From an uncultured Chlorobiaceae bacterium (GTDB lineage Bacteria; Bacteroidota; Chlorobiia; Chlorobiales; Chlorobiaceae): 64,000 nt of DNA. Positions 10,119 to 61,968 of this stretch are shown piece by piece; position 1 is the first letter of the stretch, and the number at the start of each line of letters is the position of its first letter. The translations under genes and the position numbers were made by a program. The DNA lies in contig CAITSZ010000012.1 of NCBI GenBank assembly GCA_903895195.1, positions 1 through 64,000 on the forward strand, read 5' to 3'. The notes under the pieces are model-generated. The model was not told where the DNA came from. It was given only the letters and a program-made list of their open reading frames with translations, and made no database searches.

Positions 10119-10345
10119 GTGGGCAGTTGGCAAGGGGAGGGAGTGCTGAGTGCTGAGTGCTGGGTGCGGAGGGAAAACAGTTGGCAGTGGGCAGTGGGCT
10201 GTCGGCTGTGGGCAGTGGGCTGTGGGCAGTTGGCTGTTGGCTGTTGGCTGTTGGCTGTTGGCTGTTGGCTGTTTGAGAGAAGAATAGGTCATATAGGACT
10301 TATAGCAGCTTTGGGACTTAAAGGGTAAGACTTATAATTGCATAT
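10119..10345. repeat. Simple-sequence repeats: heptamer array and GGACTTATA units
   Basis: 10140-10229 is a degenerate mix of GAGTGCTG and GGGCAGT units. 10230-10271 is a perfect tandem array of six TTGGCTG heptamers. 10289-10345 holds several units of the type ATAGGACTTATAG. The same unit types recur at 32911-33188, 33572-33622, 44730-44830 and elsewhere. The array separates the cupredoxin and copper-ATPase genes and leaves no room for a conventional leader before the ATPase start. Confidence 0.85.
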
Positions 10346-12599
10346 GACGACGAGGACTTATAGCGTTAAGGGGATGCATTGTGCGAGTTGTGCGGCAATT
10401 ATTACCAAGAAGCTTTTGAAGGTTGAGGGGATCGCGGAGGTTAGTGTCAATCTTGCCAGTGAGAGGGCTAAGCTTGAGTTTGAGGGCGGTGCACTTTCGG
10501 CGGAGGAGGTTAATGAGCTGATCGGCAAGTATGGCTATACCTTTAGTGCTGAACAGATGGAAGAGAGGGGTAATGCTCTCCTTTTAAAAGAGGAGAAACA
10601 GAAAGAGCTTCAGGCTCAACTGGGCCGGGTGAGGTTTGCTTTGCCGGTGGCTTTGCTGGTGTTTATCCTTATGATGTGGGATACCGGCTCGATGTTTTTC
10701 TCTTTTATTCCGCACATGCCGATTTCGATGGAGTTGTTCAATCTTGTCTCCATGGTTGTTGCCACGTATATGGTATTCCGGATCGGGGCTCCATTCCTGC
10801 ATGGAATATCGATGTACGTTAAAACCGGAGCGGCGAGCATGGATACGCTGATCGGCATCGGGACACTTGCAGCTTATATGTACAGTGCTGTTGTGACGCT
10901 GATTCCTTCTGTAAGAGAGCTGCTGCATATACCCGACCACACCTACTTCGATGTTACCATTGTGGTTATCGGCTTTGTGGTGCTGGGAAAATATCTTGAG
11001 GCGCGGTCGAAGATGAAGACCGGCGAAGCTATAGAAAAGCTGATTGGCCTGCAGGCTAAATCGGCCCTTGTCATCAGAGAGGGGAAGGAGATTGAAATTG
11101 CGGTGGAAGAGGTGAAGAGAGGCGATGCTGTTATTGTCAAACCGGGGGGGAAAGTGCCTGTTGACGGCATTATTACCCAGGGGTATTCGTCTCTGGATGA
11201 ATCAATGGTGACGGGAGAGTCTCTACCGGTGGATAAAGCGATTGGGGATCAGGTTATCGGAGGCACAATCAACAAACAGGGATCGTTTACCTTCACCGCT
11301 TCGAAGGTCGGTGCTGACACGCTGCTTGCACGCATTATCAGGATGGTTGAAGATGCACAGGGGTCGAAAGCACCTATACAGAACATCGCTGATAAAATTG
11401 CAGGGATTTTTGTTCCGGTTGTGCTGATGCTGGCTTTCGCAACGTTTATCATCTGGCTGAGTGTGGGCTCGTATATTCTCGGATTTTCTGCTGCACTCCC
11501 CTTTGCCATCTCCGGCCTTATCGGCATTCTGGTGATTGCCTGTCCCTGCGCGCTTGGTCTGGCAACACCGACGGCGATCATTGTCGGGATTGGTAAAGGG
11601 GCTGAGTACGGCATCCTTATCAGAAATGCTGAAAGCCTTGAAAAGCTCAGTTCGGTTGATACCGTGGTGTTTGATAAAACAGGTACGCTTACGACAGGCA
11701 AGCCGAAGGTTTCCGATATCATCCCGCTTGACAGTGTCAGCAGCCCTGCTTCCCTTTTGCAGCTGGCAGCGAGTGTTGAAAGACGGTCGGAACACCCTCT
11801 GGGTCAGGCAATTGTTGAGGAGGCTGAACTACAGCAGATCACCTTAAGCGATATCGAAGCATTTGAAGCGTTTGAGGGCGTCGGCGTTTCGGCTGTGATC
11901 GGGGGCATTGCCGTCAGAGTTCGCAAGCCGGTGGAGGGTGAAAAAACCTTATCTGAATTAAAGAGAGTGCAGGATGAGGGAAAGAGTGTGGTCATCATTG
12001 AAAAAGATGGAATATGCGCGGGGTTGATTGCGTTGAGCGACATCGTCAAAGAGGATGCAAAGAGTGCTGTTGACGCGCTGCACAGGAAAGGGGTCAGGGT
12101 TATCATGCTGACGGGCGACAACCGTTCAGCGGCAGAGTTCATTGCGGGACAAGTAGGCATTGACGAGGTGATTTCTGAGGTTCTGCCGCAGGAAAAGGCG
12201 TTAAAAGTGAAAGAACTGCAGGCAAAAGGAAAAAGGGTTGCTATGGTTGGAGATGGCATCAACGATGCACCTGCTCTGGCTCAGGCTGATGTGGGGATTG
12301 CCATGGCTACAGGAACTGATGTTGCCATAGAGTCAGCCGGAATTACCCTGCTGAAGGGGGATATCAGGAAGATTGCAGGGGCAATCACCCTTTCGCGCGC
12401 GACAATGAGAGTGATACGCCAGAACCTTTTCTGGGCGTTTATCTATAATATTATTGGGATTCCTCTTGCTGCCGGGGCTTTTTATCCATTGTGGGGCATT
12501 TTTCTTAATCCGGTCTTTTCGGGGCTTGCCATGGCGGGAAGCAGCGTTTCGGTGGTGAGCAATTCGCTTAGACTGAAGAGGATGAGGCTGGAAGAATAG
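10344..12599 (+). CDS. copA: CopA-type copper-exporting P1B-type ATPase
   Basis: A 751-residue P-type ATPase. In order: one N-terminal HMA domain with G-M-H-C-A-S-C (Cys13 and Cys16), about eight membrane helices, the TGESLPVDK actuator motif, the CPCALGLATP ion-binding helix that marks Cu(I)/Ag(I) pumps, the DKTGTLT phosphorylation site, a SEHPLG motif and the GDGINDAPAL hinge. It moves Cu(I) from cytoplasm to periplasm, where the cupredoxin and Cus-type system could take over. The ATG at 10344 is preferred over the in-frame TTG at 10338. Codons 3-7 lie inside a GAGGACTTATAGCG repeat unit, so the intergenic repeat has become coding. Confidence 0.93.
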   Translation: MTTRTYSVKGMHCASCAAIITKKLLKVEGIAEVSVNLASERAKLEFEGGALSAEEVNELIGKYGYTFSAEQMEERGNALLLKEEKQKELQAQLGRVRFALPVALLVFILMMWDTGSMFFSFIPHMPISMELFNLVSMVVATYMVFRIGAPFLHGISMYVKTGAASMDTLIGIGTLAAYMYSAVVTLIPSVRELLHIPDHTYFDVTIVVIGFVVLGKYLEARSKMKTGEAIEKLIGLQAKSALVIREGKEIEIAVEEVKRGDAVIVKPGGKVPVDGIITQGYSSLDESMVTGESLPVDKAIGDQVIGGTINKQGSFTFTASKVGADTLLARIIRMVEDAQGSKAPIQNIADKIAGIFVPVVLMLAFATFIIWLSVGSYILGFSAALPFAISGLIGILVIACPCALGLATPTAIIVGIGKGAEYGILIRNAESLEKLSSVDTVVFDKTGTLTTGKPKVSDIIPLDSVSSPASLLQLAASVERRSEHPLGQAIVEEAELQQITLSDIEAFEAFEGVGVSAVIGGIAVRVRKPVEGEKTLSELKRVQDEGKSVVIIEKDGICAGLIALSDIVKEDAKSAVDALHRKGVRVIMLTGDNRSAAEFIAGQVGIDEVISEVLPQEKALKVKELQAKGKRVAMVGDGINDAPALAQADVGIAMATGTDVAIESAGITLLKGDIRKIAGAITLSRATMRVIRQNLFWAFIYNIIGIPLAAGAFYPLWGIFLNPVFSGLAMAGSSVSVVSNSLRLKRMRLEE

Positions 12600-45506: not shown

Positions 45507-45627
45507 AAGCGGCATTGACGCTATGGGTGGCAGCACAACTCACCACGTTGTGAAACTTGTAAAAAGTTGGGAATTTAAGTATTGTTTTTTGTACGAGACA
45601 TTGTTTTAACCCCCACCCTCCCCGCCA

Positions 45628-47685
45628 ATGAAATGCCATTGCATGGCTTTTTTGAAGCCTTTGGTTACAGGATTTGCATTCTCAATAATTGCTTGCAATT
45701 CATTTGCTACCGATTCATCTAATTATTTGCGAACAGATCCACCATCCGGCGATCAACTTTGGGGTCTGCGCATGATTGGTCTTAATAGCGCAGTTAAGGC
45801 AGGTTTTACGGGTAAAGGTATAATCGTTGGAGTCCCTGATGATATCATTTTTGTGAATCATCCAGAATTTGCCGGTAAAGTAGTTGGCACCTACAATATC
45901 TACCCTGATTCTCCGTATGAACCTAACACAGGAGAATCCCACGGTACTCATATTGCCGGAACTATTCTGGGAACCAACGTCGGAATAGCAACAGGGAGCA
46001 AACTGGTGGGTATCAATTTCACAAGTGGAGGATGGACTATTCCGGATTTCAATGAACATATTATTGCCGGTTATGATTTTGGCATCCGTAATGGTGTTAA
46101 GGTATACAACAACTCTTGGGGAGTAGGTAATTTTGCCGACTATACCTTTGCAAAGATCGAAAGTGAGTTGCCGAATGTGGTGCAGGCTTTTCGTAATACT
46201 ACGGCAGCTGGTTCTATACAGGTATTTGCAGCAGCTAATGAAGGTCGGCCCACTCCTGCCATACAAGCGGCCCTTCCTTATTATTATCCTGAATTTAAGC
46301 CTTACTGGATTGCAGTTGTTGCTGTAGGGCCTGACGGCAATCTTTCATCGTATTCCAATGCTGCCAATATCGCGGCCGAATGGACTATTGCCGCGCCTGG
46401 TGGCGCTAGAATCCCCAATTCGCCAGATCAAGATATCTGGTCAACTTGGCTGAGTGATTCTTATGCCGCTGGATCCGGCACATCCATGGCTGCCCCTCAT
46501 GTTACCGGTACCGTGGCAGTGGCAATGGAAATCTTCCCCCATGCCACCGGCCCGGAGCTGGTGCAAATGGTACTGCAAACAGCAACCGATATCGGCGCAC
46601 CCGGGGTTGACGCGACCTATGGCTGGGGGCTGCTGAACCTTGGCAATATCGTCCAAACCATTGAACCGCGCACAGCCGGACTATTTGCCAATGCGGCATG
46701 GTCGCGTTTCGTTACCATGGATCATATGGGCACGGCCCTGCGCCAGCGTATATTCACTTCTTCGCTCGGCTCCGGCGTTGGGTCGCAGCAAGAGGTACTC
46801 TCATTTTCAACTGGTGACGGGAAAGGCAGTGCAACCCTGAAGACGCATAGCTTATGGGTGCTCCCAATCTATGGCATTGCGAACCTTGATTCGGGCGCTG
46901 ATTCGCAGTCGCTACACACCACCACTACGGGTACCTGGATTGGCACTGACCTGATCGATTTGGAGACGACCCGCCTAGGCGTTGCCGCAGGTGTATCGAG
47001 AACGGATATGGAAACAATCACTTCGCTTGACAAGGGACGCACTGATGCGTTGCATTTTGGCCTCTTTGCTTCCAAAAACTTGGTCGATTGGGTGCTTGAA
47101 GGCAGCGGCCAATTTGCCTTGATGAACCAGTCCCTCACGCGATATGATATTTCTGGTGCTGCTGGTACGGCTCGCCCTCCAGTCGGGAAAAGCAGTTTCC
47201 GTTCCGATGCTCTTGAGGCTGCAGTGAGCCTTGCCCGCAAGTTCCAGCACAATAGCGGATGGAGCCTCGCCCCCTATGCTTCACTGAACTGGCGCTGGCA
47301 GCAATCAGATGCCTTCAGTGAAACTGATGCCAGAATCTTTAACCTCAAGGCTCCGCAAAACACCTTGTACCAGCTTGAACCCGGCGCTGGTCTGCGCTGG
47401 TCATCGGCTCCGACCATGAGTCGAGCAGGAAGCTTGCGCTTTTCTGCTGATGTGGGCTATTCACAACTGACCGGTGATCTTGACAATAAAATTCAGGTCA
47501 CCCTGCTCGGCCGGCCGATAGGGGCGCATACTGCGACCCTTGGAATGGATATCCTCAACTTCGGAGCACAGTTGAACTTTGCCACCCTCAGCCGTAACGC
47601 TTCAGGTATCCTCGGCTACCGAGGACGGCTCCAGCAGAATGCCAATGAACATACCTTCATGGCAGGGGTGAATGTGAAGTTTTAA
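45628..47685 (+). CDS. Subtilisin-like (S8) serine protease autotransporter
   Basis: 685 residues. A signal peptide (about 1-27) precedes an S8 domain with Asp71 (VGVPDDI), His105 (SHGTHIAG), oxyanion Asn204 (AAANEG) and Ser286 (GTSMAAPHVTG). From about residue 400 the sequence turns into an autotransporter beta-barrel ending in AGVNVKF. The passenger would be displayed on or released from the cell surface, as in the SphB1/AspA group. The gene starts 281 bp from the N1 promoter in divergent orientation. It could cleave an exported peptide or its own passenger; target unknown. An in-frame ATG at 45643 is an alternative start. Confidence 0.88.
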   Translation: MKCHCMAFLKPLVTGFAFSIIACNSFATDSSNYLRTDPPSGDQLWGLRMIGLNSAVKAGFTGKGIIVGVPDDIIFVNHPEFAGKVVGTYNIYPDSPYEPNTGESHGTHIAGTILGTNVGIATGSKLVGINFTSGGWTIPDFNEHIIAGYDFGIRNGVKVYNNSWGVGNFADYTFAKIESELPNVVQAFRNTTAAGSIQVFAAANEGRPTPAIQAALPYYYPEFKPYWIAVVAVGPDGNLSSYSNAANIAAEWTIAAPGGARIPNSPDQDIWSTWLSDSYAAGSGTSMAAPHVTGTVAVAMEIFPHATGPELVQMVLQTATDIGAPGVDATYGWGLLNLGNIVQTIEPRTAGLFANAAWSRFVTMDHMGTALRQRIFTSSLGSGVGSQQEVLSFSTGDGKGSATLKTHSLWVLPIYGIANLDSGADSQSLHTTTTGTWIGTDLIDLETTRLGVAAGVSRTDMETITSLDKGRTDALHFGLFASKNLVDWVLEGSGQFALMNQSLTRYDISGAAGTARPPVGKSSFRSDALEAAVSLARKFQHNSGWSLAPYASLNWRWQQSDAFSETDARIFNLKAPQNTLYQLEPGAGLRWSSAPTMSRAGSLRFSADVGYSQLTGDLDNKIQVTLLGRPIGAHTATLGMDILNFGAQLNFATLSRNASGILGYRGRLQQNANEHTFMAGVNVKF

Positions 47686-47814: not shown

Positions 47815-47912
47815 TGCTCCGCTGGCTCCATGTCGGTTTATGACCACTCCGGCAGGGCAAAGGTAACCTGGCAAAAAACTATCCCCACGAACGGGGTTGA
47901 CCGAAGGTGTGA
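47815..47912. repeat. 3' element of a Nif11 gene, N2 copy, with terminator
   Basis: It contains the conserved motif CGGTTTATGACCACTCC (47834-47850), GTAACCTGGCAAAAA and a CCCCACGAACGGGG hairpin (47883-47896). On the minus strand the hairpin is followed by a T run, so it terminates N2. The same order of parts recurs after N3 and N5. The 47686-47942 gap otherwise holds no gene. Confidence 0.72.
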
Positions 47913-47942: not shown

Positions 47943-48173
47943 TCAACAGTAGCGTATATGCCAATGCAAAACAGTACCACCCGCGGCGGAATCCAATTCT
48001 GCATCACTCAACTCTCCTGCCACCTCTTTAATTTCTGCCTCGCTGCAATCAAACCCTTCGCTCTGGATGCAGGCCAGCCGACCGGCAACATCCTCTATGG
48101 CCATAACACGCTTGGCAAACGCTTCGTCTGACTTCATCCTCTCGATGAACAATCTTGCCTGGTCTAATGACAT
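47943..48173 (-). CDS. Nif11-type RiPP precursor peptide N2
   Basis: 76 residues. Subfamily A leader (MSLDQARLFIERMKSDEAF ... SEGFDCSEAEIKEVAGEL, then LDSAAGG) and a 10-residue core TVLHWHIRYC with a terminal Cys. AAAGGAGGATCTC precedes the ATG, identical to N1. The leader is closest to N7, but the cores differ at nearly every position. Divergent from the PLP decarboxylase gene. Confidence 0.9.
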   Translation of the reverse strand: MSLDQARLFIERMKSDEAFAKRVMAIEDVAGRLACIQSEGFDCSEAEIKEVAGELSDAELDSAAGGTVLHWHIRYC

Positions 48174-48242: not shown

Positions 48243-48496
48243 AAGCAGTAATGTCCCCATGCGCCGAAGAGCCTTCAAAGCACCCGATTATGCTGCTGTG
48301 GCGGCTTTTACGTTAAACCTTATGCTTTGGCCGGAAATATCTATATTTAATTCTGTTTTCAATGGAGTTCACAGCCCTGTTGATATGGTTATGATAGAGA
48401 CTGATCTTGATATTGTTGTATGACGATATTTGTAAAAGTGTTGCGGCAAAAAAACCGGTCTTGATTGAGAGGGAAAACATAACGGAGGATCAGAAC

Positions 48497-50179
48497 ATGC
48501 AGAACGAGACGACTAAAGCGGTGATTCAGGATGTAGTTGATTCTTCTCACAAGGGAGTCGAGAGCTTGACCCGCCGTTCTTTTATTGGCATCAGTTCATT
48601 AGCCATTGCGGGTGCTTATCTGTTCCGTCCTGCGCGTATGTGGGCTGCTGCGCGACATATGAAAGTTGACAGTAAAGCATTTCTGACTGATTTTAAGCCC
48701 TCTGTCGGATTTGTTGAGTTTCGCAATTCAGAAACCATTGTCGGAGGCTATCGGGTCGAATGGTGGGAGAAGAATTTCGGATTACCACTGACCATCAACT
48801 ATGCGCCAGCCATCCACAACTCCATCCGATCGTTTAAAAAAGTATTTGAGGAGCACTATCCGCAAGGGGAAATTCGGTATGCGGTTAAAGCGAATACACA
48901 TCCGGAGATACTGGCGATTGCCCGTTCCGAAGGAATTGGCGCAGATGTGGCATCTGAGAATGAAATGCGTTGTGCGTTGGAGGCAAAACTTCCGGCGGAA
49001 CATATTGATGTCAATGGAAACAGTAAAACTCCAGCACTGATTGAAAAGGCCCTGAAAGGCAACATGCTCCTTGTCGTGGATAGTATTGAGGAGTTTGAGG
49101 TTATTTCCGGAATGGCGAAAAAGATGGGAGTCCGGGCGCGGTGCCTTATGCGCCTTAGTGGATTTGATCTTGGAAAGGTTACCGACCTGGGTTCGTTCAC
49201 TGCCGGTTCATGGTGCAAGTTCGGTATGAATATTCAGAAAATGCCCGTTTTTCTTGATATCATTCTGCCTAAACATCCCCATATGGATTTCATGGGGTTT
49301 CATATACACATTGGTACACAGGTTTTTTCTGACGTTTCTTATCGTACAGTGCTTGGCAAGTTGATCGAGTTTTCACACCGGCTTAATGAAAAAGGGGGCC
49401 GATGCCGGATTCTCAACCTGGGTGGCGGGTTCCCGGTCAGCTACCTGACCCGGATTGAATGGGAAACTGAATTGAATCGCATTCGGGAAGGTTATCTTGC
49501 GGCTAAAAAAGGGGATTTTTCAAAAGTATGGGTGTGGGGCAACTCTCCCGCCATGTTCATGGATCCTGAAACTGGCGTCATCAATCTTGACGAGTGGTCT
49601 GGCGAGAAATCCTATTCCGCCTATCCAGAAGCGAAGATGCTGGAAACGATTCTTGTTGGTGATGTCACCGTTGACGGGAAAACGATGTCGGTGAAAGAGG
49701 CTCTGCATGGAATCGGCAATCCGACGTTAATCGTAGAGCCTGGGCGTGCAATAACCGAGACCAGTGGCGTAAGTCTTGCCAGAATAAAGGGGATTCGCAC
49801 CATAGACTACGATCATAATATGATTACTCTGGATGCCGGAGCTGTCAATTACGATTCGGCGGTAGAGCGGGATTATCTGATGCGCAATTGGTCTCTGGCA
49901 ACCCAGGGAAACAGGAAAAGCACCCAGCCGTTCACGGCATTCCTTGCCGGGCGCTTATGCTATAATGGCGATATCATCTACCGCCAGAAAATTATGCTTC
50001 CCACGCGGCCATCCATCGGTGATATTCTGATATGCCATGATACTGGCGCATATTCTTCGCACTTCTATCTGTCGTGCGTAAATTCTTTCGCACGGCCGGC
50101 AAGACTAATGGCTTTTGGTGATGGCTCTATCAAATATCTTAAATCCAAGGATACCTATGAGGAAATATTTTCCCTGTAG
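48497..50179 (+). CDS. Tat-exported PLP-dependent amino-acid decarboxylase
   Basis: 560 residues from the ATG at 48497 (GGAGG eight bases upstream). Residues 25-44, TRRSFIGISSLAIAGAYLFR, form a twin-arginine signal. The rest is a fold-type III (alanine-racemase-like) decarboxylase of the Orn/DAP/Arg group: PLP Lys131 in YAVKANTHPE, HIHIGTQ, the Gly loop NLGGGFPVSY, EPGRAI, and the C-terminal Cys-Asp-type motif LCYNGD with GAY. Such enzymes are normally cytoplasmic; export with cofactor bound is what the Tat route allows. Substrate unknown. Divergent from N2. Confidence 0.87.
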   Translation: MQNETTKAVIQDVVDSSHKGVESLTRRSFIGISSLAIAGAYLFRPARMWAAARHMKVDSKAFLTDFKPSVGFVEFRNSETIVGGYRVEWWEKNFGLPLTINYAPAIHNSIRSFKKVFEEHYPQGEIRYAVKANTHPEILAIARSEGIGADVASENEMRCALEAKLPAEHIDVNGNSKTPALIEKALKGNMLLVVDSIEEFEVISGMAKKMGVRARCLMRLSGFDLGKVTDLGSFTAGSWCKFGMNIQKMPVFLDIILPKHPHMDFMGFHIHIGTQVFSDVSYRTVLGKLIEFSHRLNEKGGRCRILNLGGGFPVSYLTRIEWETELNRIREGYLAAKKGDFSKVWVWGNSPAMFMDPETGVINLDEWSGEKSYSAYPEAKMLETILVGDVTVDGKTMSVKEALHGIGNPTLIVEPGRAITETSGVSLARIKGIRTIDYDHNMITLDAGAVNYDSAVERDYLMRNWSLATQGNRKSTQPFTAFLAGRLCYNGDIIYRQKIMLPTRPSIGDILICHDTGAYSSHFYLSCVNSFARPARLMAFGDGSIKYLKSKDTYEEIFSL

Positions 50180-50487
50180 CCATTTGAGGGGCACTCTTTG
50201 CAAAGCGGCATAGTCGCAATTCGATGTGCAAAAGCTGCATTGGAATCTCGTTGTACTTACGTTGAGATTTATAAAAGCGCTGCCCTCAGCCGCATTTCGC
50301 TCAGCCATGCAACAGCCCGCATTCTCAGCCGCTTGCATTTGGTGCAGCAAGCTGCATTTGGCGCTTTCAGCGGTTGGGCTGCATTCGCTGCTATTCGGTC
50401 TATGTCCGCTCCGGCATCGAAAAGGTAACCTGGCAAAAATCAGCCCCACTCATGGGGTTTACCGGAGGCGCGTGTCTTCTCCACACG
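50180..50487. repeat. Two duplicated segments between decarboxylase gene and N3
   Basis: 50296-50375 is an 80-bp block found unchanged at 51573-51652. 50376-50469 is a 94-bp block found unchanged at 57635-57728, which includes the N3 terminator. No gene is supported in this gap. Confidence 0.85.
50433..50458 (-). terminator. Terminator of Nif11 gene N3
   Basis: On the minus strand CCCCA-TGAG-TGGGG is followed by CTGATTTTTG. It lies 30 bp past the N3 stop. The identical hairpin after N5 is partly translated. Confidence 0.75.
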
Positions 50488-50730
50488 TTATGATAAGTAT
50501 AACCAATTCATTGAATAATTGCCAACGCGCCCCGCCCCTGCTGCTTGATCTAAATCATCATCCCTCAACTCGCCATGCACCTCTTTGACCTCCTCTTTGG
50601 TAAACGCAAATCCTGCTTCGCTTGCCGCAACAAGCCTTGCATCGACATCTTCAATTGCAACGATGCGATTGCGGAATGCCTCGTCTGACTTCATCTTCTC
50701 GATGAACGCTCTTGCTTGATCTAATGACAT
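50488..50730 (-). CDS. Nif11-type RiPP precursor peptide N3
   Basis: 80 residues from the ATG at 50730; the frame stays open upstream, but MSLDQ is the family start. Subfamily B leader (EAGFAFTKEEVKEVHGEL). The cleavage region reads LDQAAGAG rather than AAGG, giving a core near RVGNYSMNWLYLS, with no Cys. The leader is almost identical to that of N5, yet the cores are unrelated. Confidence 0.87.
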   Translation of the reverse strand: MSLDQARAFIEKMKSDEAFRNRIVAIEDVDARLVAASEAGFAFTKEEVKEVHGELRDDDLDQAAGAGRVGNYSMNWLYLS

Positions 50731-50782
50731 GATATTCTCCACGGGTTGGGGTTGGGGTTGGGGTAATGAATTAGTCCCTCTC

Positions 50783-50811
50783 AAGTTATGTAGCAGTTAC
50801 TGAAATTGCAA
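50783..50811 (-). promoter_or_regulatory. Shared Nif11 promoter, N3 copy
   Basis: TTGCAA, 17 bp, TAACTT on the minus strand. The sequence between promoter and ATG contains a G/T-rich run (plus strand GGGTTGGGGTTGGGGTTGGGG) shared with N4. Confidence 0.72.
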
Positions 50812-51155
50812 AAGCAAAGCGCTGCACTCCGCCCTGCCGGGCTCAATTTGCGCAGCCTGCTTGCGTTAGCCAGAGCATCATAACCGGCATCGGTAATTCA
50901 GTACTGCAATCTGGCGTCTGGGCAGGCGGCATGGCAAATGCAAAAGCAACTCAGCAGTAAGCCTGCATCGCATGTCGGAACATGCTCGCCAGCTTTATGA
51001 GCAAGGGGCCTCTCGTCAGAGACTCCGGCAGTACGTCATCCGATGGCACCGCTGGCTCCATGGCGGTTTGGAGGGTATGGTATCAACTAAAGGTTGCGTC
51101 ACTAAATACTGGGTCTATGTCCTGTAGTATATGCAAATCACCGGGGCCATGGTAC
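50812..51155. repeat. Intergenic mosaic with inverted-repeat copy C1
   Basis: 51060-51153 matches the reverse complement of 61853-61949 with scattered differences (CTAAATACTGGGTCTATGTC and ATCACCGGGGCCATGGTAC are conserved). 50812-50865 resembles the GC-rich segment beside N1 and N4. No gene is supported. Confidence 0.7.
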
Positions 51156-51446
51156 TCACCTAATGTCGGGTCGGTTTTTGACCAATTCCGCCCAGGTAAT
51201 AACAGAACCCTCAATACCCTTATGACCATAATGGCCTATATCTGGCCTTCCCCCCGCGGCCTCATCCAGCTCCTCGTCGCTTAGCACACCAGCTACCTCT
51301 TTAATCTCCGCCTCGCTGCAATCAAACCCAGCGCTTTTGATGAGATTAAAGCGCTCTGCAACATCCTCAATAGCCATAACACGCTCATTAAAGGCAACGT
51401 CCGATTTCATCTTGTCGATGAACGCTCTTGCTTGATCTACGGACAT
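51156..51446 (-). CDS. Nif11-type RiPP precursor peptide N4
   Basis: 96 residues from the ATG at 51446 (MSVDQARAFIDKMKSD). Subfamily A leader ending VLSDEELDEAAGG and a 30-residue core, the longest here, that begins RPDIGHYGHKGIEG and ends VKNRPDIR; RPDI occurs at both ends. There is no Cys. An X-Tyr-Gly (HYG) site is present, the type of motif cut by radical-SAM spliceases, but no such enzyme is in the window. The last codons run into the dispersed motif at 51172-51192, so the C-terminus is repeat-derived. Confidence 0.87.
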   Translation of the reverse strand: MSVDQARAFIDKMKSDVAFNERVMAIEDVAERFNLIKSAGFDCSEAEIKEVAGVLSDEELDEAAGGRPDIGHYGHKGIEGSVITWAELVKNRPDIR

Positions 51447-51492
51447 GAGGTACTCCTTGGGTTGGGGTTGGGGTAATGGATTTCTCCCTCTC

Positions 51493-51521
51493 AAGTTATG
51501 TAGCAGTTACTGAAATTGCAA
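51493..51521 (-). promoter_or_regulatory. Shared Nif11 promoter, N4 copy
   Basis: TTGCAA, 17 bp, TAACTT on the minus strand, in an upstream region nearly identical to that of N3, although the N4 leader belongs to the other subfamily. Confidence 0.72.
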
Positions 51522-51572
51522 AAGCACAGCGCTGCACTCCGCCTTGAAGGGCTCCGTTTGCGCAGCATTGCC

Positions 51573-51652
51573 TTCGCTCAGCCATGCAACAGCCCGCATT
51601 CTCAGCCGCTTGCATTTGGTGCAGCAAGCTGCATTTGGCGCTTTCAGCGGTT
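51573..51652. repeat. 80-bp perfect direct repeat, second copy
   Basis: By direct reading it matches 50296-50375 base for base (TTCGCTCAGCCATGCAACAG at the start, GGCGCTTTCAGCGGTT at the end). It lies between the N4 promoter and the beta-lactamase gene. Identity over 80 bp of non-coding DNA implies recent duplication or gene conversion. Confidence 0.88.
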
Positions 51653-51923
51653 CGATGCCCCCAGCTTGTACAGCCGCCCTCCGCTGCATTCCGCTGCAGT
51701 CCGACTCGGTCAGGCAACGCACAGCAAAGTGCAAGGCGTTCTGCGCGCTGTCGTTTGCCCAATGCCGAAAGAGAAGAAAGACCCGTAGCTCCCAAATGAA
51801 GAGCTGATTTAATTGTGGCATCGAAATTCATTCCGATTACAATGAGTCGTTTCATTTCCTTTCTTTTTTTTGGAACTTCCATGAATGAAACTGAAAATGT
51901 TAAAGGCTTGAGGAGGTGTGAAG

Positions 51924-52712
51924 ATGAGTTATCGGATATTTCTGATGTTGTTTTTCTTCGGTTATCCTGCGTTTACTGGTGCCGAACAGATTGATAAAAA
52001 GCTTTTTGGTGCATACGATATTTCCCTCGTGATCTTTAATCGCTCCTCCGGGGTCATGAGCAAGGTGAACCCTGTGCAGAGTGCCCGGCGGTTTCCCCCC
52101 TGTTCAACATTCAAAATCTATAATACCCTGATTGGCTTGCAGCTAGGTCTGATAAAAAACGCTGATGACCCATGGTATATCTGGGACGGCGTTCATCGCG
52201 ATATCGAAGCATGGAATCGCGACTTGACTCTCCGTGACGCGTTCAGGGCATCGGCAGTGCCTGCCTTTCAAAGGCTGGCAAGAGAGATTGGACCTGCAAG
52301 GATGAAAACTTATATCAATCGGATTGGCTATGGAAACGGGGATATCTCTGTAGGGATCGATAACTTCTGGCTTCCCGGGCAGGGAAACGAAGGAATTCTG
52401 ATCAGCGCAGATGAACAGGTTGCACTTTTGAATAAATTGCTGGACGGCAATCTGCCATTTTCCGGAAAGCAGTTGAAGATACTTCGTGATGTGATGCTAA
52501 ATCAAGAAACAGCAAAAGGTCGGCTTTATGGCAAGACAGGATCAGGCAGTAGTTCTGAAGGGCAAGAGGCGCTTGGATGGTTTGTCGGTTTTCTCGAAAG
52601 CAGTGGAGCCGTCTACGTGTTCGCCTGTAACATTAACGGAGGAGAGCATCCCTCTGGAAAAACCGCCCGAATTATCATGGAAAATGTTTTCAGGTCTCAG
52701 AATCTTTTGTAG
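51924..52712 (+). CDS. Class D (OXA-type) beta-lactamase
   Basis: 262 residues from the ATG at 51924 (AGGAGG seven bases upstream; the GTG at 51918 is too close to it). A signal peptide (ends FTGA) precedes a complete class D active site: S61-T-F-K64, S110-A-V112, Y136-G-N138, the FWLPG tryptophan at 149 and K204-T-G206. It hydrolyses beta-lactams in the periplasm through an acyl-Ser intermediate and carboxylated Lys. A chromosomal, non-resistance role such as wall-peptide sensing cannot be excluded. Divergent from N4. Confidence 0.9.
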   Translation: MSYRIFLMLFFFGYPAFTGAEQIDKKLFGAYDISLVIFNRSSGVMSKVNPVQSARRFPPCSTFKIYNTLIGLQLGLIKNADDPWYIWDGVHRDIEAWNRDLTLRDAFRASAVPAFQRLAREIGPARMKTYINRIGYGNGDISVGIDNFWLPGQGNEGILISADEQVALLNKLLDGNLPFSGKQLKILRDVMLNQETAKGRLYGKTGSGSSSEGQEALGWFVGFLESSGAVYVFACNINGGEHPSGKTARIIMENVFRSQNLL

Positions 52713-53059
52713 CTGCAGGAAAACCGTTTGTCATGCCGCTTGCCAAGCTTAAAAGCTCAAGCACCCCGCCAAACTGGATGAACATTGCAAAAGCTGCATC
52801 CGCATTCGCTGCCGGTTGCTCTTGTGCAGCAAGCCCGCATTCGCTGCCAGTTGCTTTCATGCAGCAAGCCTGCGTCCGCACAAACCGGTGCATTATTGAA
52901 CTTTCAGCTTCGCTTTGGAGTGGCTGAACTGGCGCTTGGGCTGGTAAGAGCTTTGGCGGGTGGCGGTGCATAGAAGTCGCGGCGGGGGGGGGAATGCAAA
53001 CATTGCGATGTTGGCAATGCCGATTTTGTAAAAATCCTTTTTGCCTTAATTCGATATCA
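52713..53059. repeat. Intergenic region with 35-bp tandem duplication
   Basis: 52800-52833 and 52835-52868 are near-identical units (CCGCATTCGCTGCC, then GTTGCT and GCAGCAAG). The same vocabulary appears in the 80-bp block. The remainder, including a run of nine G near 52985, has no supported gene. Confidence 0.7.
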
Positions 53060-53479
53060 TTATACCTGCCAGAACTCCAATGCACCTTTGGGCAGCTTTG
53101 ACAGTACCTGTTCGAAAGCTTCTTCGTCGATGCACTGCCGAAGAGCAAGAGAAACATCTCGAATGGCAGTCCTGGTTGAAAAGTTGTGTCTGGATCGAAG
53201 AGCCAAGACTTCCTGCGTCATGACGGCACGATCCTCAAACGGACGAATAGGTTCGTTGGTATCCCAATCGGCCACAAATACAGCTCGAACTACTGGTGGC
53301 AAAACAGCCGCAAATAAGATGGCATCCTTGAGCTCAAGACGACGTCGAAAAGTCTGCAAAACCCCTTGCATCATTGTATAAGCCTGATGAGTGCTCCCAA
53401 AACCGGAAAGGTCACGCACTTTTATCAGAAACTTGTAGAAGTCGTCTGTTGCCCGTTGATACTCAGAGGGTACCGGCAT
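53060..53479 (-). CDS. DUF2267 family protein
   Basis: 139 residues, MPVPSEYQRATDDFYKFLIK at the start and VADWDTNEPIRPFEDRAVMT in the middle, which match the DUF2267 family over its full length. CAGGAG precedes the ATG. The family is widespread and uncharacterised; members often occur near stress genes. Confidence 0.85.
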   Translation of the reverse strand: MPVPSEYQRATDDFYKFLIKVRDLSGFGSTHQAYTMMQGVLQTFRRRLELKDAILFAAVLPPVVRAVFVADWDTNEPIRPFEDRAVMTQEVLALRSRHNFSTRTAIRDVSLALRQCIDEEAFEQVLSKLPKGALEFWQV

Positions 53480-53904
53480 GGAGTGCTCCTGTTTGCGGTG
53501 CTGATGCTGTTTGAATACTTCAGATTAAAAATATAAAAAAAAGAACAGAGTACTGTTAATGTCCGAGAATGCAATCGCAAAAACGTCTGAACTGGCGCTT
53601 GGTGTTGCTTTTCCGGACTCTGGCGGGGGCACCTGCTTTATGGCGAATACACCTTCAACTCAGCGGTTAAGCCTGCGGCATGAAGAATGATGCTGGAGTG
53701 TCGGCGGGCATTGGCGGGCGTGTCAGCAGTGCTTGGCGGTGCCTAGGCGGCAGAGGTTTGGCTTGAGAGCTTGGCATTGGCGGCGGCAAGACGCGCAGCA
53801 AGAGGGCGCGGGGAGAGGGCAAAGCGTCAGGCCTGGCAGAGAGTGTGTGGCGTATATCTAGCCCTAACAGCAGGTCGGTTTATGACCACTCCTGCATCGT
53901 AAAG
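53480..53904. repeat. Intergenic region with dispersed repeats
   Basis: 53730-53815 is related to 56647-56727 (GCTTGGCGGTGCC, CTTGAGAGCTTGGCATTGGC, GAGGGCGCGGGGAGA). 53876-53896 is a copy of the CGGTTTATGACCACTCC motif. No gene is supported. Confidence 0.65.
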
Positions 53905-54951
53905 CTAGTTTGGCAACAAAGGGAGCCTTGATACAGTGGTACAAGTTATGAATTTCCAGTCCCTCGACGGTCGCCCATCCACTACAGGCACCTGAATTAT
54001 TACTTGAAACCATGTCGGGATGGTTCCCAGTTGCTCTTTAATTTTTGTTTTTAATCTTTCTATCTGTGTGTCTTCCGAGATAATTCTGGATGCCGCTTCC
54101 GTTCCCTGGGAATTGACTCCGGCACAAATAATGACAACTTTCGATAAGTCAAAGGGGCTTGGTGTTCTTGTTATGATTGCATAATCCTCCTTAATGTCGA
54201 ACGGTGTGCGCCCGGCCCCCCACTTAGGCTCGTATTTTTTTACTCCGTTTTTGTAAATAGCGCCATCATAGGAACGATACGGGATATTCCAACAGAGCAT
54301 ATAAGCTGCTATCTTATCAATAAATTTTTGAGAATAACAGTGAGATATCCATCCGCCCAAAAGGATAAGATTTTCGTCTGGATAACCGGAGTTTGACTGG
54401 GCTACTTTGATTGAGTTTATTCTGTGTTTAATAAAAAACTCTTTTATTGATAGAAGGCCTAATGCCTCTCCTATCCCTGTATACTCATCCAGCGATTCAA
54501 TAACGTGTCTGAAAGTGGTATCTCCCACATTTATTTCGTGGCCGATATCCAATAGGTGTAAGTCCATCAACGACTGTTGCGGTATATCGGAAATCGATTG
54601 CTTGTGAAAATGGGTTACTAAAGCATTCTGTTCTTCCTTATTGAGATATTTGTAAACGGGTGGGTTGCTGAGGATGATGGTGCCACCACTCTTGAAAAAT
54701 TCTGAGTACAGGAAACCATTGTCCGCAAAATTTTCTCTTTCTAACTTTATCTCTAATACTGAAGGGCTTGGCATCCAGTCATTCAGTTTTAAGCCGAGAC
54801 CAAATACAAGTAAAAGGACAGAGAAAACAATTCCACTAAGCTTATATAACTGAGAAACTGGTAGGCTTAAAATGTCTTTTATTGTCCATTGTTCTGGTGG
54901 CTTGGTTGCCTTAGCCTCTTCGTTCTTCTTAGAATTCACATTCATTTTCAT
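53905..54951 (-). CDS. Unknown membrane-anchored protein, 348 residues
   Basis: A charged N-terminal segment of about 35 residues, one membrane helix (about residues 38-60), then a soluble domain. The soluble part has glycine loops (FKSGGTIILSNPPV, LILLGGWISHCYS, VVIICAGVNSQGTEAA) that suggest an alpha/beta fold, but I do not recognise a family. It is more AT-rich than the GC-rich repeats around it, which suggests a separate origin. Confidence 0.7.
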   Translation of the reverse strand: MKMNVNSKKNEEAKATKPPEQWTIKDILSLPVSQLYKLSGIVFSVLLLVFGLGLKLNDWMPSPSVLEIKLERENFADNGFLYSEFFKSGGTIILSNPPVYKYLNKEEQNALVTHFHKQSISDIPQQSLMDLHLLDIGHEINVGDTTFRHVIESLDEYTGIGEALGLLSIKEFFIKHRINSIKVAQSNSGYPDENLILLGGWISHCYSQKFIDKIAAYMLCWNIPYRSYDGAIYKNGVKKYEPKWGAGRTPFDIKEDYAIITRTPSPFDLSKVVIICAGVNSQGTEAASRIISEDTQIERLKTKIKEQLGTIPTWFQVIIQVPVVDGRPSRDWKFITCTTVSRLPLLPN

Positions 54952-55173
54952 CGTTTCTTAAAGTCTAACGCCGCAAATAACCGGCCAACAATAATTAGAT
55001 GGATTCACCTATATCGCAGAATTTTAAATTCTAACTGATATAAGCCGTAAATTCAAAATCATATAAAACGCCGTTAACTTTCTTATTCTTTGCTACTTAT
55101 ATGGAAAGGCCTAAGACTGTTGCGTACAACCCGTAGTTCCATAAGTTGCTGAATGGTTAGAGCGTTGGAAAAT

Positions 55174-55287
55174 TTACGTCATATTCAGCAAACTTCCATC
55201 GATATCTTCAATGGCTATGATGCGCTCCCTGAATGCCTCGTCCGATTATATCTTTTCGATGAACGCTCTTGCATGATCTGCTGACAT
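55174..55287 (-). pseudogene. Nif11 leader gene remnant (psi1)
   Basis: The frame starts MSADHARAFIEKI, hits TAA where other copies have Met-Lys, and continues SDEAFRERIIAIEDIDGS before losing similarity and stopping again. The C-terminal half of the leader and the core are missing. The promoter and a ribosome-binding region are still present, so decay is recent. Confidence 0.85.
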
Positions 55288-55332
55288 AAAATTCTCCATG
55301 GGTTGGTGATAATCTAGCGAGCTTTTACTCTG

Positions 55333-55361
55333 AAGCTACGCGTTTGCGGCAGCAATTGCAA
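55333..55361 (-). promoter_or_regulatory. Shared Nif11 promoter, psi1 copy
   Basis: TTGCAA, 17 bp, TAGCTT on the minus strand, kept intact upstream of the broken gene. Confidence 0.68.
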
Positions 55362-55642
55362 AAGCAGCCTGCAGCCTGCTCCCCCCGCCCCCCGTCGCCC
55401 CCCGTCGCTTCACTTCGTTCCACTCCTCGCTGCCAGCATGCCGCGCACCTATGCTACTCTGCTGTTGAAGAGCTTTGCCGGAGTGTCACCTTACCTTTGA
55501 GGCTGTTATCCTGTTTCTTCATTAGACGTGGCAAAGGGCCCATAGCGCCATACTTGCCGCTCACTGATGTTCGCCGCAAGCACAGCACTCTAACCCTTGC
55601 CTTGCCCTTCATAGTTTACTTTAAGATCAAAAAAGCGGGATT
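55362..55642. repeat. Intergenic region with repeat D, copy 1
   Basis: 55450-55552 is related to 56523-56624: TTGAAGAGCTTT, GGAGTGTCACCTTACCTTTG and TGTTATCCTG are shared in the same order. A run of C-rich sequence (55380-55402) precedes it. No gene is supported. Confidence 0.65.
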
Positions 55643-55891
55643 TTATACAGTAAGCAGTGCAGATTGAACTGAATCTATCAGCGCGATTAGTTCTGTCGGG
55701 TTTAGAACAACTTGGGTACCAACATAACCCGCTCGAACTACTGGGTTTACTCCATTTTTTGAAATCACTCCATCAAGATGTTTCAGGTAGTTAGAAACAA
55801 TAACTGCTGTTGCCTGATTGACCCCGAGGGCTATCTGGTCAGCTTTACTCATTGTTGTTGAGACTGGCATAGCAAACGTGACTTGTTCCAT
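55643..55891 (-). CDS. Small unknown protein, 82 residues
   Basis: AACAGGAGAGATT before the ATG is one of the best ribosome-binding sites in the island. The peptide starts MEQVTFAMPVSTTMSKADQI and is rich in Val, Ala, Asn and Thr, with no signal peptide, no GG leader and no Cys. No family is recognised. Position among the RiPP precursors makes it a possible accessory or a second precursor type, which is speculation. Confidence 0.6.
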   Translation of the reverse strand: MEQVTFAMPVSTTMSKADQIALGVNQATAVIVSNYLKHLDGVISKNGVNPVVRAGYVGTQVVLNPTELIALIDSVQSALLTV

Positions 55892-56951
55892 AATCTCTCC
55901 TGTTAATTGTTGTTGAAGTGGACGAGTTACACCGTTGATAGAAATGTCCTGGAGCCCTACTAATCGATCGGGCTTGCAAAATGGGTACGCAAGAAAAAGT
56001 CACGACACGCAGACAGACTGAAACCGTAAAAAGCTACAGACCTGAATGTTTTTCTGAGCTTATTCAGTTGTATATTTTTGACGGATAATTAGAGTACCTC
56101 AGAAATAGAGCTGTAAATAGCTAAAAGCAACAAACTGCAGAGAGTATATCATCTTATGAAACAAAGTATTAGCTATGGTTCAATGTGTTAAGGTCAAGGA
56201 ATAGACAGTCTTGTAACTGATATATTTCAAATCAAGACAATTCGGAGGTATCGAAAGGACTACCATGTAATGCAGTCTTGTATGAGAACAACGCATTAAT
56301 GATAAATTAGTGAGGACTGAATTTAAGAATAATTTAATAAACCCGAATGGAAGATACAAGACGTGAAGTATAATATTCATGTTTCCGTAATCTGAAATCT
56401 ATTTGTCCTGCGGAGATTACAACATGCAAGAGAAATCATTTGCTCGCGATGTTGATTACTAAGCCCCGTTTCGCGTCAGTTGCATTGTAAACATTTTCGA
56501 ATGCCCTTCGCTTCGCTCAGCGCTATGCTGCTCTACAGTTGAAGAGCTTTGGCGGAGTGTCACCTTACCTTTGTATCTGTTATCCTGATGCTTCAATAGT
56601 CGTGGCGAGTGGCACAGAGCGCCGTTAGTGCATGTTTTGATTATGGCTTGGCGGTGCCGGGCAGAATAGATTTAGCGTGAGAGGTTGGCATTGGCAGCGA
56701 AGGCACGCAGCGAGAGGGCGCGGGGAGAAAAGAGGGCGCCTTTTAGAAACACCAGCAAGAATTTCTCTAATCTACCCTTGATGGGGACGTTACGGTCATT
56801 TGTTTCTTAAATTAAAAAACTTAATGCCGTATTTTATAGTGTTTTGATGTGTAAATTAAAATGCAATTTCAGACCATTCTGGAAAACGGGTATGGTGAAG
56901 ATAATTATGTTTTTTTTAGCAAGAAGTTGTTACGAAAAATGGAGATAATTA
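55892..56951. other. 1-kb region without a supported gene; two repeat copies
   Basis: 56523-56624 is copy 2 of repeat D and 56647-56727 is copy 2 of the 53730-53815 repeat. The part from 55960 to 56500 is AT-rich with many stops; the only longer frame (minus strand, 56180-56380) lacks a domain and a ribosome-binding site. The 3' part (56800-56951) leads into the next gene with GGAGATAATTA. Confidence 0.55.
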
Positions 56952-57575
56952 ATGACAATACCTCGATATGCAGTTGAAAAAGAATATGAAATTCTGCGCG
57001 CTGAGTTGGTTGATGGAAAGAAATATGTATTTGAAAGGCCATTTCTGATAATTACCGGTGCTCTCGCATCTATTCAACTAGTAGCAAACGAATATGCAAT
57101 TTTATTTGCACCCATAGTCGTTTGTCTCCTATCATTCAATTTCTGGTTTACTGTAAATAGGATGGGGAGCATGGCCAGAATAATAGCGTATATTGTACTG
57201 ATCCTTGATGACCAAGATTCGCCATGGTTTGGCTGGGAGACATCGCTCAGAAAGTATCGGAAATGGTTAAAGATAGATAAATTAGGTATTAGGAAAATAC
57301 CTGTATCTGAGGATGCTGCGTCTGATAGTTTACGTTTTTACCCGGTGATTTTTTACATACATGTGATCGCTAATTGGCTCATAGTAGCACTATCCGTTGC
57401 TTATACAGTCTTAATGCCTTGTTCGATAACTTTTCTAATTGTCATTATTACTTTAATTAGTGTATGCGTATTTACTTATTATGCTAACAATAATAGTCCA
57501 GGTATTCTTCGGCTGGAAATTGAACAAAATAGGATAGTGTGGAAAAAGGTGTTCAAAAATTGGAATACTCTATGA
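56952..57575 (+). CDS. Unknown membrane protein, 207 residues
   Basis: GGAG seven bases before the ATG supports the start. Four hydrophobic segments in two pairs (about residues 29-48, 50-70, 131-150, 154-175) flank a charged middle with DDQDSPWFGWETSLRKYRKW. No family is recognised. Marked AT richness and absence of neighbours in the same operon suggest transfer from elsewhere. Confidence 0.7.
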   Translation: MTIPRYAVEKEYEILRAELVDGKKYVFERPFLIITGALASIQLVANEYAILFAPIVVCLLSFNFWFTVNRMGSMARIIAYIVLILDDQDSPWFGWETSLRKYRKWLKIDKLGIRKIPVSEDAASDSLRFYPVIFYIHVIANWLIVALSVAYTVLMPCSITFLIVIITLISVCVFTYYANNNSPGILRLEIEQNRIVWKKVFKNWNTL

Positions 57576-57634
57576 CCTAGTAAGCTTTCCAAGCCTCTGC
57601 CGCTCATCGCTGCCAAAGCGCCGCACTCCCCTCC

Positions 57635-57728
57635 GGGCTGCATTCGCTGCTATTCGGTCTATGTCCGCTCCGGCATCGAAAAGGTAACCTGGCAAAAATC
57701 AGCCCCACTCATGGGGTTTACCGGAGGC
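57635..57728. repeat. 94-bp perfect direct repeat, second copy
   Basis: Matches 50376-50469 base for base by direct reading. It contains the CGGTCTATGTCCGCTCC form of the dispersed motif and the CCCCACTCATGGGG hairpin (57703-57716). The first 30 bases of the N5 3' coding end lie inside it. Confidence 0.9.
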
Positions 57729-58022
57729 CCATTGCTGCAATTCAAGTTCTTTATCCGTTAACCTCTTTATCATGATCCCTGTCGTAATGACCTCATCAAT
57801 ACGATGTCTCGGATCATTCGCTCCGCTACTATGTGCTTGATCTAAATCATCATCCCTCAACTCGCCATGCACCTCTTTGACCTCCTCTTTGGTAAACGCA
57901 AATCCTGCTTCGCTTGCCGCAACAAGCCTTGCATCGACATCTTCAATTGCAACGATGCCATTGCGGAATGCTTCGTCCGATTTCATCTTTTCGAGGAACG
58001 CTCTTGCCTGATCTAATGACAT
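57699..58022 (-). CDS. Nif11-type RiPP precursor N5 with aberrant C-terminus
   Basis: 107 residues from the ATG at 58022. The subfamily B leader is nearly identical to N3 up to ELRDDDLDQA, then diverges to HSSGANDPRHR with no Gly-Gly site and a 45-residue extension. The last residues, ASGKPHEWG, are encoded by the terminator hairpin of the 94-bp repeat, and the stop lies in its T tract. Either the core was replaced by unrelated DNA and the gene is inactive, or a new type of core has arisen. Confidence 0.78.
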   Translation of the reverse strand: MSLDQARAFLEKMKSDEAFRNGIVAIEDVDARLVAASEAGFAFTKEEVKEVHGELRDDDLDQAHSSGANDPRHRIDEVITTGIMIKRLTDKELELQQWASGKPHEWG

Positions 58023-60267: not shown

Positions 60268-60507
60268 TCAACAACTATAGGACATACCCCAAAATAAAGA
60301 TTTTGATTTACCCCCCGCCGCCGCATCAAGATCCTGATCACTCAACTCACCTGACACCTCTTTAATCTCTGCCTCGCTGCAATCAAACCCTTCGCTCTGG
60401 ATGCAGACCAGCCGCGCGGCAACATCCTCTATGGCCATAACACGCTTGGCAAACGCTTCGTCTGACTTCATCCTCGCGATGAACAATCTTGCCTGGTCTA
60501 ATGACAT
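60268..60507 (-). CDS. Nif11-type RiPP precursor peptide N7
   Basis: 79 residues. Subfamily A leader (MSLDQARLFIARMKSDEAF ... LSDQDLDAAAGG) and a 13-residue core KSKSLFWGMSYSC with terminal Cys, two other Ser-Lys pairs and aromatic residues. CAAGGAGGATGTC precedes the ATG. Divergent from the outer-membrane barrel gene. GGGGTTAACCGG just past the stop matches the 3' element after N1. Confidence 0.9.
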   Translation of the reverse strand: MSLDQARLFIARMKSDEAFAKRVMAIEDVAARLVCIQSEGFDCSEAEIKEVSGELSDQDLDAAAGGKSKSLFWGMSYSC

Positions 60508-61608: not shown

Positions 61609-61968
61609 TCAATCTTAGTTCGCACATCGGTGTGGCTCTTCGTGCAGGCAAGCCTGCAGCCTTTGGCTGTTAAGCACAAGCGGCCAGGTTATCGATCAGC
61701 ATTGAGCGAGAATGAATGCATTTTGGTCGATTAGGCTAATCCCGACAGACTGCCAGGGGATAACTCGTTTACGCCTCTTTGCAGAGGTTATTTTTCCACG
61801 TAACGCCTGTAGGATGCCGGAGTGGTCATAAACCGCTCTGGCATCAGGTACGTACCATGGCCCCGGTGATGTGAAGATGTTTCAGGACATAGACCCAGTA
61901 TTTAGCGAAGCCGCATGCTGGTTGATACCATACCATCCAAACCGCCATGCTGTTCAATGAATTTTATA
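61609..61968. repeat. Intergenic region with inverted-repeat copy C2
   Basis: 61853-61949 is the reverse complement of 51060-51153 with some changes. 61815-61835 is the dispersed CGGTTTATGACCACTCC motif in reverse. No gene is supported. Confidence 0.7.

What the first reader, a model, noticed from the sequence alone, without database searches (positions are those of the whole stretch)
50376..58022. Core swapping between a conserved leader and a conserved terminator (N3 versus N5)
N3 and N5 share a nearly identical leader on one side and a 94-bp perfect repeat with the terminator on the other. Only the DNA between, which encodes the core, is unrelated (RVGNYSMNWLYLS versus a long HSSGANDPRHR type). 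This looks like replacement of the core while both flanks were kept, a cassette mode of peptide diversification.
Basis: seen in the sequence. Interest (0 to 1): 0.75.

Follow-up and report, generated by a model that had tools for sequence, protein, structure and literature searches.

The report
Swapped peptide tails beside dead reverse-transcriptase gene
In a green sulfur bacterium two small peptide genes share the same front part and the same stretch of DNA behind them but carry unrelated tails; relatives show many such tail swaps, and the shared rear stretch is the end of a reverse-transcriptase element that also borders swapped tails or neighbouring genes of surface proteins in other bacteria.

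Summary
N3 (50730-50488, -) and N5 (58022-57699, -) are Nif11-leader RiPP precursors (TIGR03798). 125 nt of leader and 94 nt behind the core are identical; the 72 nt and 105 nt between are unrelated, with sharp edges. Three corrections. (1) The left edge lies 9 nt inside the leader. N5 has lost the AAGG cleavage motif, has no homologue in the collections searched, and stops only inside the terminator-like stem, so N5 is probably an atypical or broken precursor. (2) The pattern is family-wide: 14 gene pairs keep both flanks at >=80% identity with the segment between near shuffle level; identity falls from ~1.0 to ~0.25 at the GG motif and recovers at the stop. (3) The '94-bp terminator repeat' is the conserved ~100-bp interval between Nif11/NHLP precursors and a convergent UG4-class reverse transcriptase (intact in relatives, only fragments here). 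In enterobacterial plasmids UG4 RTs likewise abut swapped autotransporter tips or unrelated fimbrial adhesin genes. For N3/N5, block replacement by ordinary recombination is the best reading, because no intact RT was found in this assembly. That UG4 RTs drive such exchanges is untested but testable. Core cassette swapping itself is known (patE, prochlorosins).

The parts
50488..50730 (-). N3: Nif11-leader precursor, leader 50533-50730, core GRVGNYSMNWLYLS 50491-50532, stop 50488-50490
   Evidence: TIGR03798 E 2e-19; HMM boundaries
57699..58022 (-). N5: Nif11-leader precursor with leader cut 3 codons short (57834-58022) and a 44-residue tail HSSGANDPRHR...HEWG ending in the terminator-like stem
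   Evidence: TIGR03798 E 2e-17
50542..50666 (-). N3 copy of the 125-nt identical leader segment
57834..57958 (-). N5 copy of the 125-nt identical leader segment
50470..50541 (-). N3 replaced segment (core)
57729..57833 (-). N5 replaced segment, unrelated to N3, no second copy found
50376..50469 (-). 94-nt 3' block behind N3: relic of the spacer between precursor gene and convergent UG4 RT; weak hairpin 50444-50457
57635..57728 (-). 94-nt 3' block behind N5, identical to that of N3; weak hairpin 57703-57716
47833..47907 (-). Third copy of the 3' block (81%) behind N2 (47943-48173), whose core is again different (TVLHWHIRYC)
51156..51446 (-). N4: precursor whose core runs into the far end of the 3' block (block mostly deleted)
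50948..51160 (+). UG4 reverse transcriptase remnant (C-terminal ~70 aa, 69% identical to intact relatives, one TAG), convergent with N4
61847..61949 (-). Second UG4 RT remnant (last ~22-38 aa)

Best explanation
N3 and N5 are copies of one RiPP precursor cassette: Nif11 leader, core, then the ~94-nt spacer that once separated the gene from a convergent UG4 reverse transcriptase. The DNA between the leader end and the spacer has been exchanged as a block while both flanks stayed the same. The exchange is most simply ordinary recombination: leader and spacer are repeated all over these clusters and offer homology on both sides of any core, and occasional inexact joins produce aberrant genes such as N5 (cleavage motif lost, reading frame running into the spacer) and N4. 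Shown: the two identical flanks, the sharp edges, the unrelated middles, the same pattern in 14 gene pairs, and the origin of the spacer. Inferred: that recombination is the agent, the direction of the exchange, and that N5 makes no normally processed peptide.
For: 125 nt + 94 nt identical on either side of unrelated 72/105 nt. In six cassettes of three related genomes mean identity is 0.94-1.0 until 18 nt before the leader end, about 0.2-0.3 in the core and 1.0 again from 36 nt before the GTTTTTGCC anchor. 14 pairs with both flanks >=0.80 have middles close to shuffled sequence (mean z 1.1); e.g. G085:C17 and G060:C67 share 96.7% over 241 nt downstream with unrelated cores. Several draft contigs of relatives end inside the leader repeats, as expected for many near-identical copies. 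Only RT fragments were found in this genome, which argues for RT-independent recombination here. Chimeric joins of leaders also occur elsewhere: N4, and a leader fused to another ORF in G069:C309.
Against: No donor for the N5 segment was found in 61 genomes of the family (own included) or in the plasmid and phage collections, so the exchange is inferred, not traced. The left edge lies inside the conserved leader, which homologous exchange between intact precursors would not give. The linkage of UG4 RTs to swapped segments in other phyla leaves a role of the RT open.
Confidence: 0.62

Rival explanations
1. N3 and N5 are older, different precursors whose flanks were made identical later by gene conversion; conversion tracts stop where homology stops, at the core.
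For: All seven leader differences lie in the 5' 85 nt and none in the 125 nt next to the core or in the 94-nt block, as expected for a recent conversion tract; leaders are highly similar between paralogues.
Against: Needs two tracts ending exactly at both core edges, and N5 must already have lacked the AAGG end of its leader.
Confidence: 0.2
2. The UG4 reverse transcriptase element replaces coding DNA at its own 3' end (RNA-templated or untemplated), and N3/N5 are products of that activity.
For: 20 of 29 RT copies that reach the C-terminus face a Nif11 3' end, mostly at 95-150 nt, and three more face NHLP precursors; UG4 RTs in enterobacterial plasmids border a swapped autotransporter tip or an unrelated adhesin-like gene right behind the RT stop.
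Against: This genome holds only RT remnants while the N3/N5 flanks show no differences over 219 nt; no template copy of any variable segment was found in the loci searched; presence of the RT flank did not significantly predict core variability (p=0.09).
Confidence: 0.1
3. Assembly artefact: short reads cross-wired between nearly identical leaders and blocks.
For: The exact repeats (125 and 94 nt) are shorter than or similar to common read lengths; contigs of several relatives break in these leaders.
Against: The variable segments are short enough to be spanned by one read with both edges; the same architecture recurs in several other assemblies, including a single-contig genome.
Confidence: 0.05
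4. Gradual divergence under diversifying selection or point hypermutation of the core.
For: Nif11 cores are known to be hypervariable (PMC2887384, PMC10783134).
Against: Cores differ in length and are near shuffle level while non-coding flanks are 90-98% identical; no intermediates among the pairs examined.
Confidence: 0.03

Closest known systems
Cyanobactin precursors patE/truE of Prochloron didemni (PMC3062557)
   Same: Short core cassettes replaced inside otherwise identical DNA (11-kb pathways identical except 24-bp cassettes that are 46% identical)
   Different: patE cassettes lie within a precursor of otherwise nearly identical gene clusters; here whole cores of different length are exchanged in many paralogues, next to an RT-derived flank, in a Nif11/radical-SAM system
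Prochlorosins of marine picocyanobacteria (PMC10783134, citing Cubillos-Ruiz 2017)
   Same: Nif11-type leaders, many paralogues, hypervariable cores, insertion-deletion changes in cores
   Different: ProcM lanthionine synthetase there, radical SAM/SPASM maturase plus NHLM exporter here; no reverse transcriptase mentioned in the passages read here
Nif11 and nitrile-hydratase leader peptide families (PMC2887384)
   Same: Leader ending in a Gly-Gly motif, then a hypervariable core; NHLM exporter genes; Chlorobium listed
   Different: The conserved 3' block and the RT behind both leader families were not mentioned in the passages read
UG4 reverse transcriptases (PMC8934634; PADLOC RT_UG4)
   Same: Chlorobiaceae RT matches RT_UG4 at E 9e-65; elsewhere UG4 sits by fimbrial genes
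   Different: Known only as an RT of unknown function near fimbriae in the papers found; the link to RiPP precursors and to swapped neighbouring segments was not found in them
Diversity-generating retroelements
   Same: An RT beside a variable 3' coding end
   Different: Different RT class, no template repeat found, cores replaced with length change rather than point-mutated

Membership tests
Nif11-leader RiPP precursors (TIGR03798) | Leader profile above cut-off | tested here: met
   N3 69.5 bits, N5 63.4 bits, cut-off 32.3
Nif11-leader RiPP precursors (TIGR03798) | Gly-Gly type cleavage motif at leader end (N5) | tested here: not met
   Met in most relatives (AAGG); N3 has AAGAG; N5 has lost it (LDQAHSSG)
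Nif11-leader RiPP precursors (TIGR03798) | Nearby maturase and NHLM exporter | tested here: met
   Radical SAM/SPASM, TIGR03794, TIGR03796, TIGR03797 on the same contig
UG4 reverse transcriptase | RT_UG4 profile is the best match by a wide margin | tested here: met
   For the longest relatives in G022 and G021: 216.8 and 195.3 bits, next profile 108.5 and 106.5; the remnant in the window was not scored on its own
UG4 reverse transcriptase | Intact gene in this genome | tested here: not met
   Only ~70 aa with a TAG and a ~22-aa piece
Diversity-generating retroelement | Template repeat matching the variable region with A-biased changes | tested here: not met
   No second copy of variable segments except orthologous cores in other genomes; own-genome search for the N5 segment finds only itself
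Diversity-generating retroelement | DGR-class RT | tested here: not met
   Best match is RT_UG4
Group II intron | Maturase domain and intron RNA | tested here: inconclusive
   RT only 91-97 bits against group_II_RT_mat (cut-off 300), RVT_1 the only Pfam domain found in a composite RT query, no Rfam intron match in the window; RNA at the intact RT loci not searched
Cyanobactin-type cassette system | PatE recognition sequences and PatA/PatG proteases | not tested
   Compared only for the mode of core exchange
Prochlorosins | ProcM-type lanthionine synthetase | not tested
   The maturase found next to the exporter is a radical SAM/SPASM protein; the rest of the genome was not searched for LanM

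The most novel reading that the evidence does not exclude
UG4 reverse transcriptases are a distinct class of diversification retroelement: the RT sits with its 3' end against the segment of a neighbouring gene that meets the outside world (RiPP core, autotransporter tip, fimbrial adhesin) and promotes wholesale replacement of that segment while its own gene and the rest of the target stay conserved.
Probability: 0.2. Interest if true: 0.92.

Novelty: new variant of a known kind. Interest (0 to 1): 0.66.

Why it matters
It turns an impression from two genes into a measured, family-wide rule (leader and 3' flank kept, core replaced as a block) and identifies the 3' flank as belonging to an RT of unknown function. 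The same RT class borders replaced segments or unrelated adhesin genes in Gammaproteobacteria. If the link is causal it would give UG4 RTs a function and add a new way to make peptide and adhesin diversity; if not, the repeated flanks are still a natural handle for RiPP core exchange.

Tried and rejected
Frameshifted copy of the N3 core: rejected. Structured RNA in the 3' block: no covariation support in either orientation and no credible Rfam match in the window. DGR-type template: none found in the loci searched. Does the RT flank predict variable cores? Suggestive only (1 of 34 versus 5 of 29 genes with a conserved core, p=0.09). The first RT queries used sequences translated or pieced together by hand from fragments of relatives; one search repeated the genome search with a real ORF.

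Full report
Check of the observation. The window lies in a genome of the green sulfur bacteria family (G000 contig 12; related loci fetched by sequence are labelled Chlorobiaceae). N3 and N5 are both Nif11-type leader peptides. Pairwise alignment gives one shared leader (210 nt, 97%), then two unrelated middles of 72 and 105 nt, then 94 identical nt. The seven leader differences are all in its first 85 nt; from there to the core 125 nt are identical. The left border lies 9 nt before the end of the leader, so N5 has no AAGG motif (LDQA-HSSG). Its frame stays open through the insert and stops at a TGA inside the terminator-like stem of the 94-nt block. The N5 segment is found nowhere else: not in its own genome, in 60 other family genomes, plasmids or phages. 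N5 is therefore probably an aberrant join rather than a well-formed new precursor; this is an inference, no expression data exist.

Is it general? I collected contigs with related leaders and built a set of 66 genes with a near-complete leader end. Cores are hypervariable, as known for this family. What had to be tested is whether the DNA behind the core is conserved while the core is not. It is: many gene pairs from different genomes share 85-95% of the leader and 85-97% of 80-240 nt downstream with cores at shuffle-level identity. A positional profile shows a step at both edges. In the close clade identity is 0.94-1.0 up to 18 nt before the leader end (one 6-nt bin 0.68, two 0.89-0.94), 0.74-0.83 in the last 18 nt, 0.18-0.33 inside, and back to 1.0 about 36 nt before the GTTTTTGCC anchor of the block, i.e. 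around the stop codon. The N5 edge at -9 falls in this breakpoint zone. Of 105 comparable pairs, 14 keep both flanks at 80% or more, and their middles score near shuffled sequence (mean z 1.1). A few cores are conserved between genomes (FWGMSYxC in four genomes; one 42-residue core in two), so exchange is not universal.

What is the 94-nt block? It recurs behind precursors in many Chlorobiaceae, and in relatives the similarity continues past the block into an open frame on the opposite strand. That frame is the C-terminus of a small reverse transcriptase. The longest copies (292-297 aa, G022 and G021) match the RT_UG4 profile with 217 and 195 bits, about twice the next profile. RT copies are mostly 5'-truncated. 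Of 29 RT copies that reach the C-terminus, 20 have a convergent Nif11 3' end within 700 nt, usually 95-150 nt away. Three more face nitrile-hydratase-type (NHLP) precursors, and two face the 3' end of a hydrolase. So the 'terminator repeat' is the spacer between precursor gene and convergent RT, shared by two leader families. It has only a weak 5-bp terminator hairpin and no covarying structure. In this genome the RT survives only as remnants, 50948-51160 behind N4 and 61847-61949.

Other UG4 loci. The literature found says UG4 RTs lie near fimbrial genes and have no known function (PMC8934634). In Salmonella plasmids (food, animal and environmental isolates) the RT is convergent with an inverse autotransporter. 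Between plasmids the RT side is 95-98% identical up to about 20-100 nt before the autotransporter stop (on the RT side), the autotransporter body is 95-97% identical, and the last 590-970 nt of coding sequence between them does not align (clearest in L186/L187, L181/L187, L181/L186). In Escherichia fimbrial operons the RT is 86-98% identical up to its stop (within about 110 nt), and in most pairs the adjacent adhesin-like gene is unrelated (L210/L211 is an exception that aligns throughout). In other E. coli genomes matches to such a locus also end at the RT stop. Burkholderia, Aeromonas, Serratia and Photobacterium have the same neighbourhood. In most of these loci the variable gene or segment touches the 3' end of the RT, whichever strand the gene is on. 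No matched control set without RT was examined, so ordinary adhesin turnover remains possible.

Mechanism. For N3 and N5 I favour block replacement by ordinary recombination: repeated leaders and blocks give homology on both sides of any core, aberrant joins (N5, N4) are the expected by-products, and only RT fragments were found in the genome while the flanks show no differences. Flank homogenisation by gene conversion between older, different genes is the main rival. An active role of UG4 RT in creating new segments is not shown by anything here; the evidence is consistent linkage across phyla, against the lack of any template copy, the dead RT in this genome and the non-significant test of core variability with and without the flank. 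I give it 0.2 as a general mechanism.

Comparison with known systems. Exchange of short core cassettes inside otherwise identical RiPP genes is established for patE/truE of Prochloron (PMC3062557), and prochlorosin cores are said to change by insertion-deletion (PMC10783134). The present case works like those. It is a Nif11/NHLM system with a radical SAM/SPASM maturase, and what is new is the UG4-derived 3' flank and its recurrence beside replaced segments elsewhere. It is not a DGR by the features tested (RT class, no template repeat).

Caveats. The related genomes are partly draft assemblies that break in these repeats; phase between the 5' part of a leader and its core can be wrong in short-read assemblies. 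Counts of pairs are not independent. The UG4 loci outside Chlorobiaceae were chosen by similarity, not sampled at random.

Noticed in passing
53905-54951 (-) with 53875-53962: The 3' end of a 348-aa membrane-type protein, not a precursor, is fused to a degraded copy of the RT-side block, so the flank has also joined to an unrelated gene.
   Followed up: partly
51156-51446 (-): N4: AAGG is intact but the core reads through the remains of the 3' block and ends antisense to the RT remnant, a second aberrant fusion.
   Followed up: partly
55193-55306, 60159, L012:6786-7038, L012:8645: Fragments of further Nif11 leaders, i.e. precursor pseudogenes on the same contig.
   Followed up: no
60268-60507 (-): N7 core KSKSLFWGMSYSC is conserved in three other genomes (FWGMSYxC) with differing leaders, a rare conserved core worth testing for function.
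   Followed up: partly
45610-47682 (+): Subtilase-type autotransporter beside N1; a similar protein lies in the Nif11 clusters of G022 (L138:640-2715) and G081, a candidate associated protease.
   Followed up: no
51912-52709 (+): Class D beta-lactamase-like gene (206.8 bits, just below the curated cut-off of 250) between precursor genes.
   Followed up: no
48407-50179 (+): PLP-dependent decarboxylase (lysA/ornithine decarboxylase-like) with an N-terminal extension, between N2 and N3.
   Followed up: no
L012:7296-8531 (-): Protein with weak similarity to pentameric ligand-gated ion channels close to the radical SAM maturase.
   Followed up: no
L172:9251-10087 (+) / 10190-11920 (-): Chlorobiaceae genome G025 has a UG4-like RT convergent, ~100 nt away, with an outer-membrane or autotransporter-like protein, no Nif11 nearby.
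   Followed up: partly
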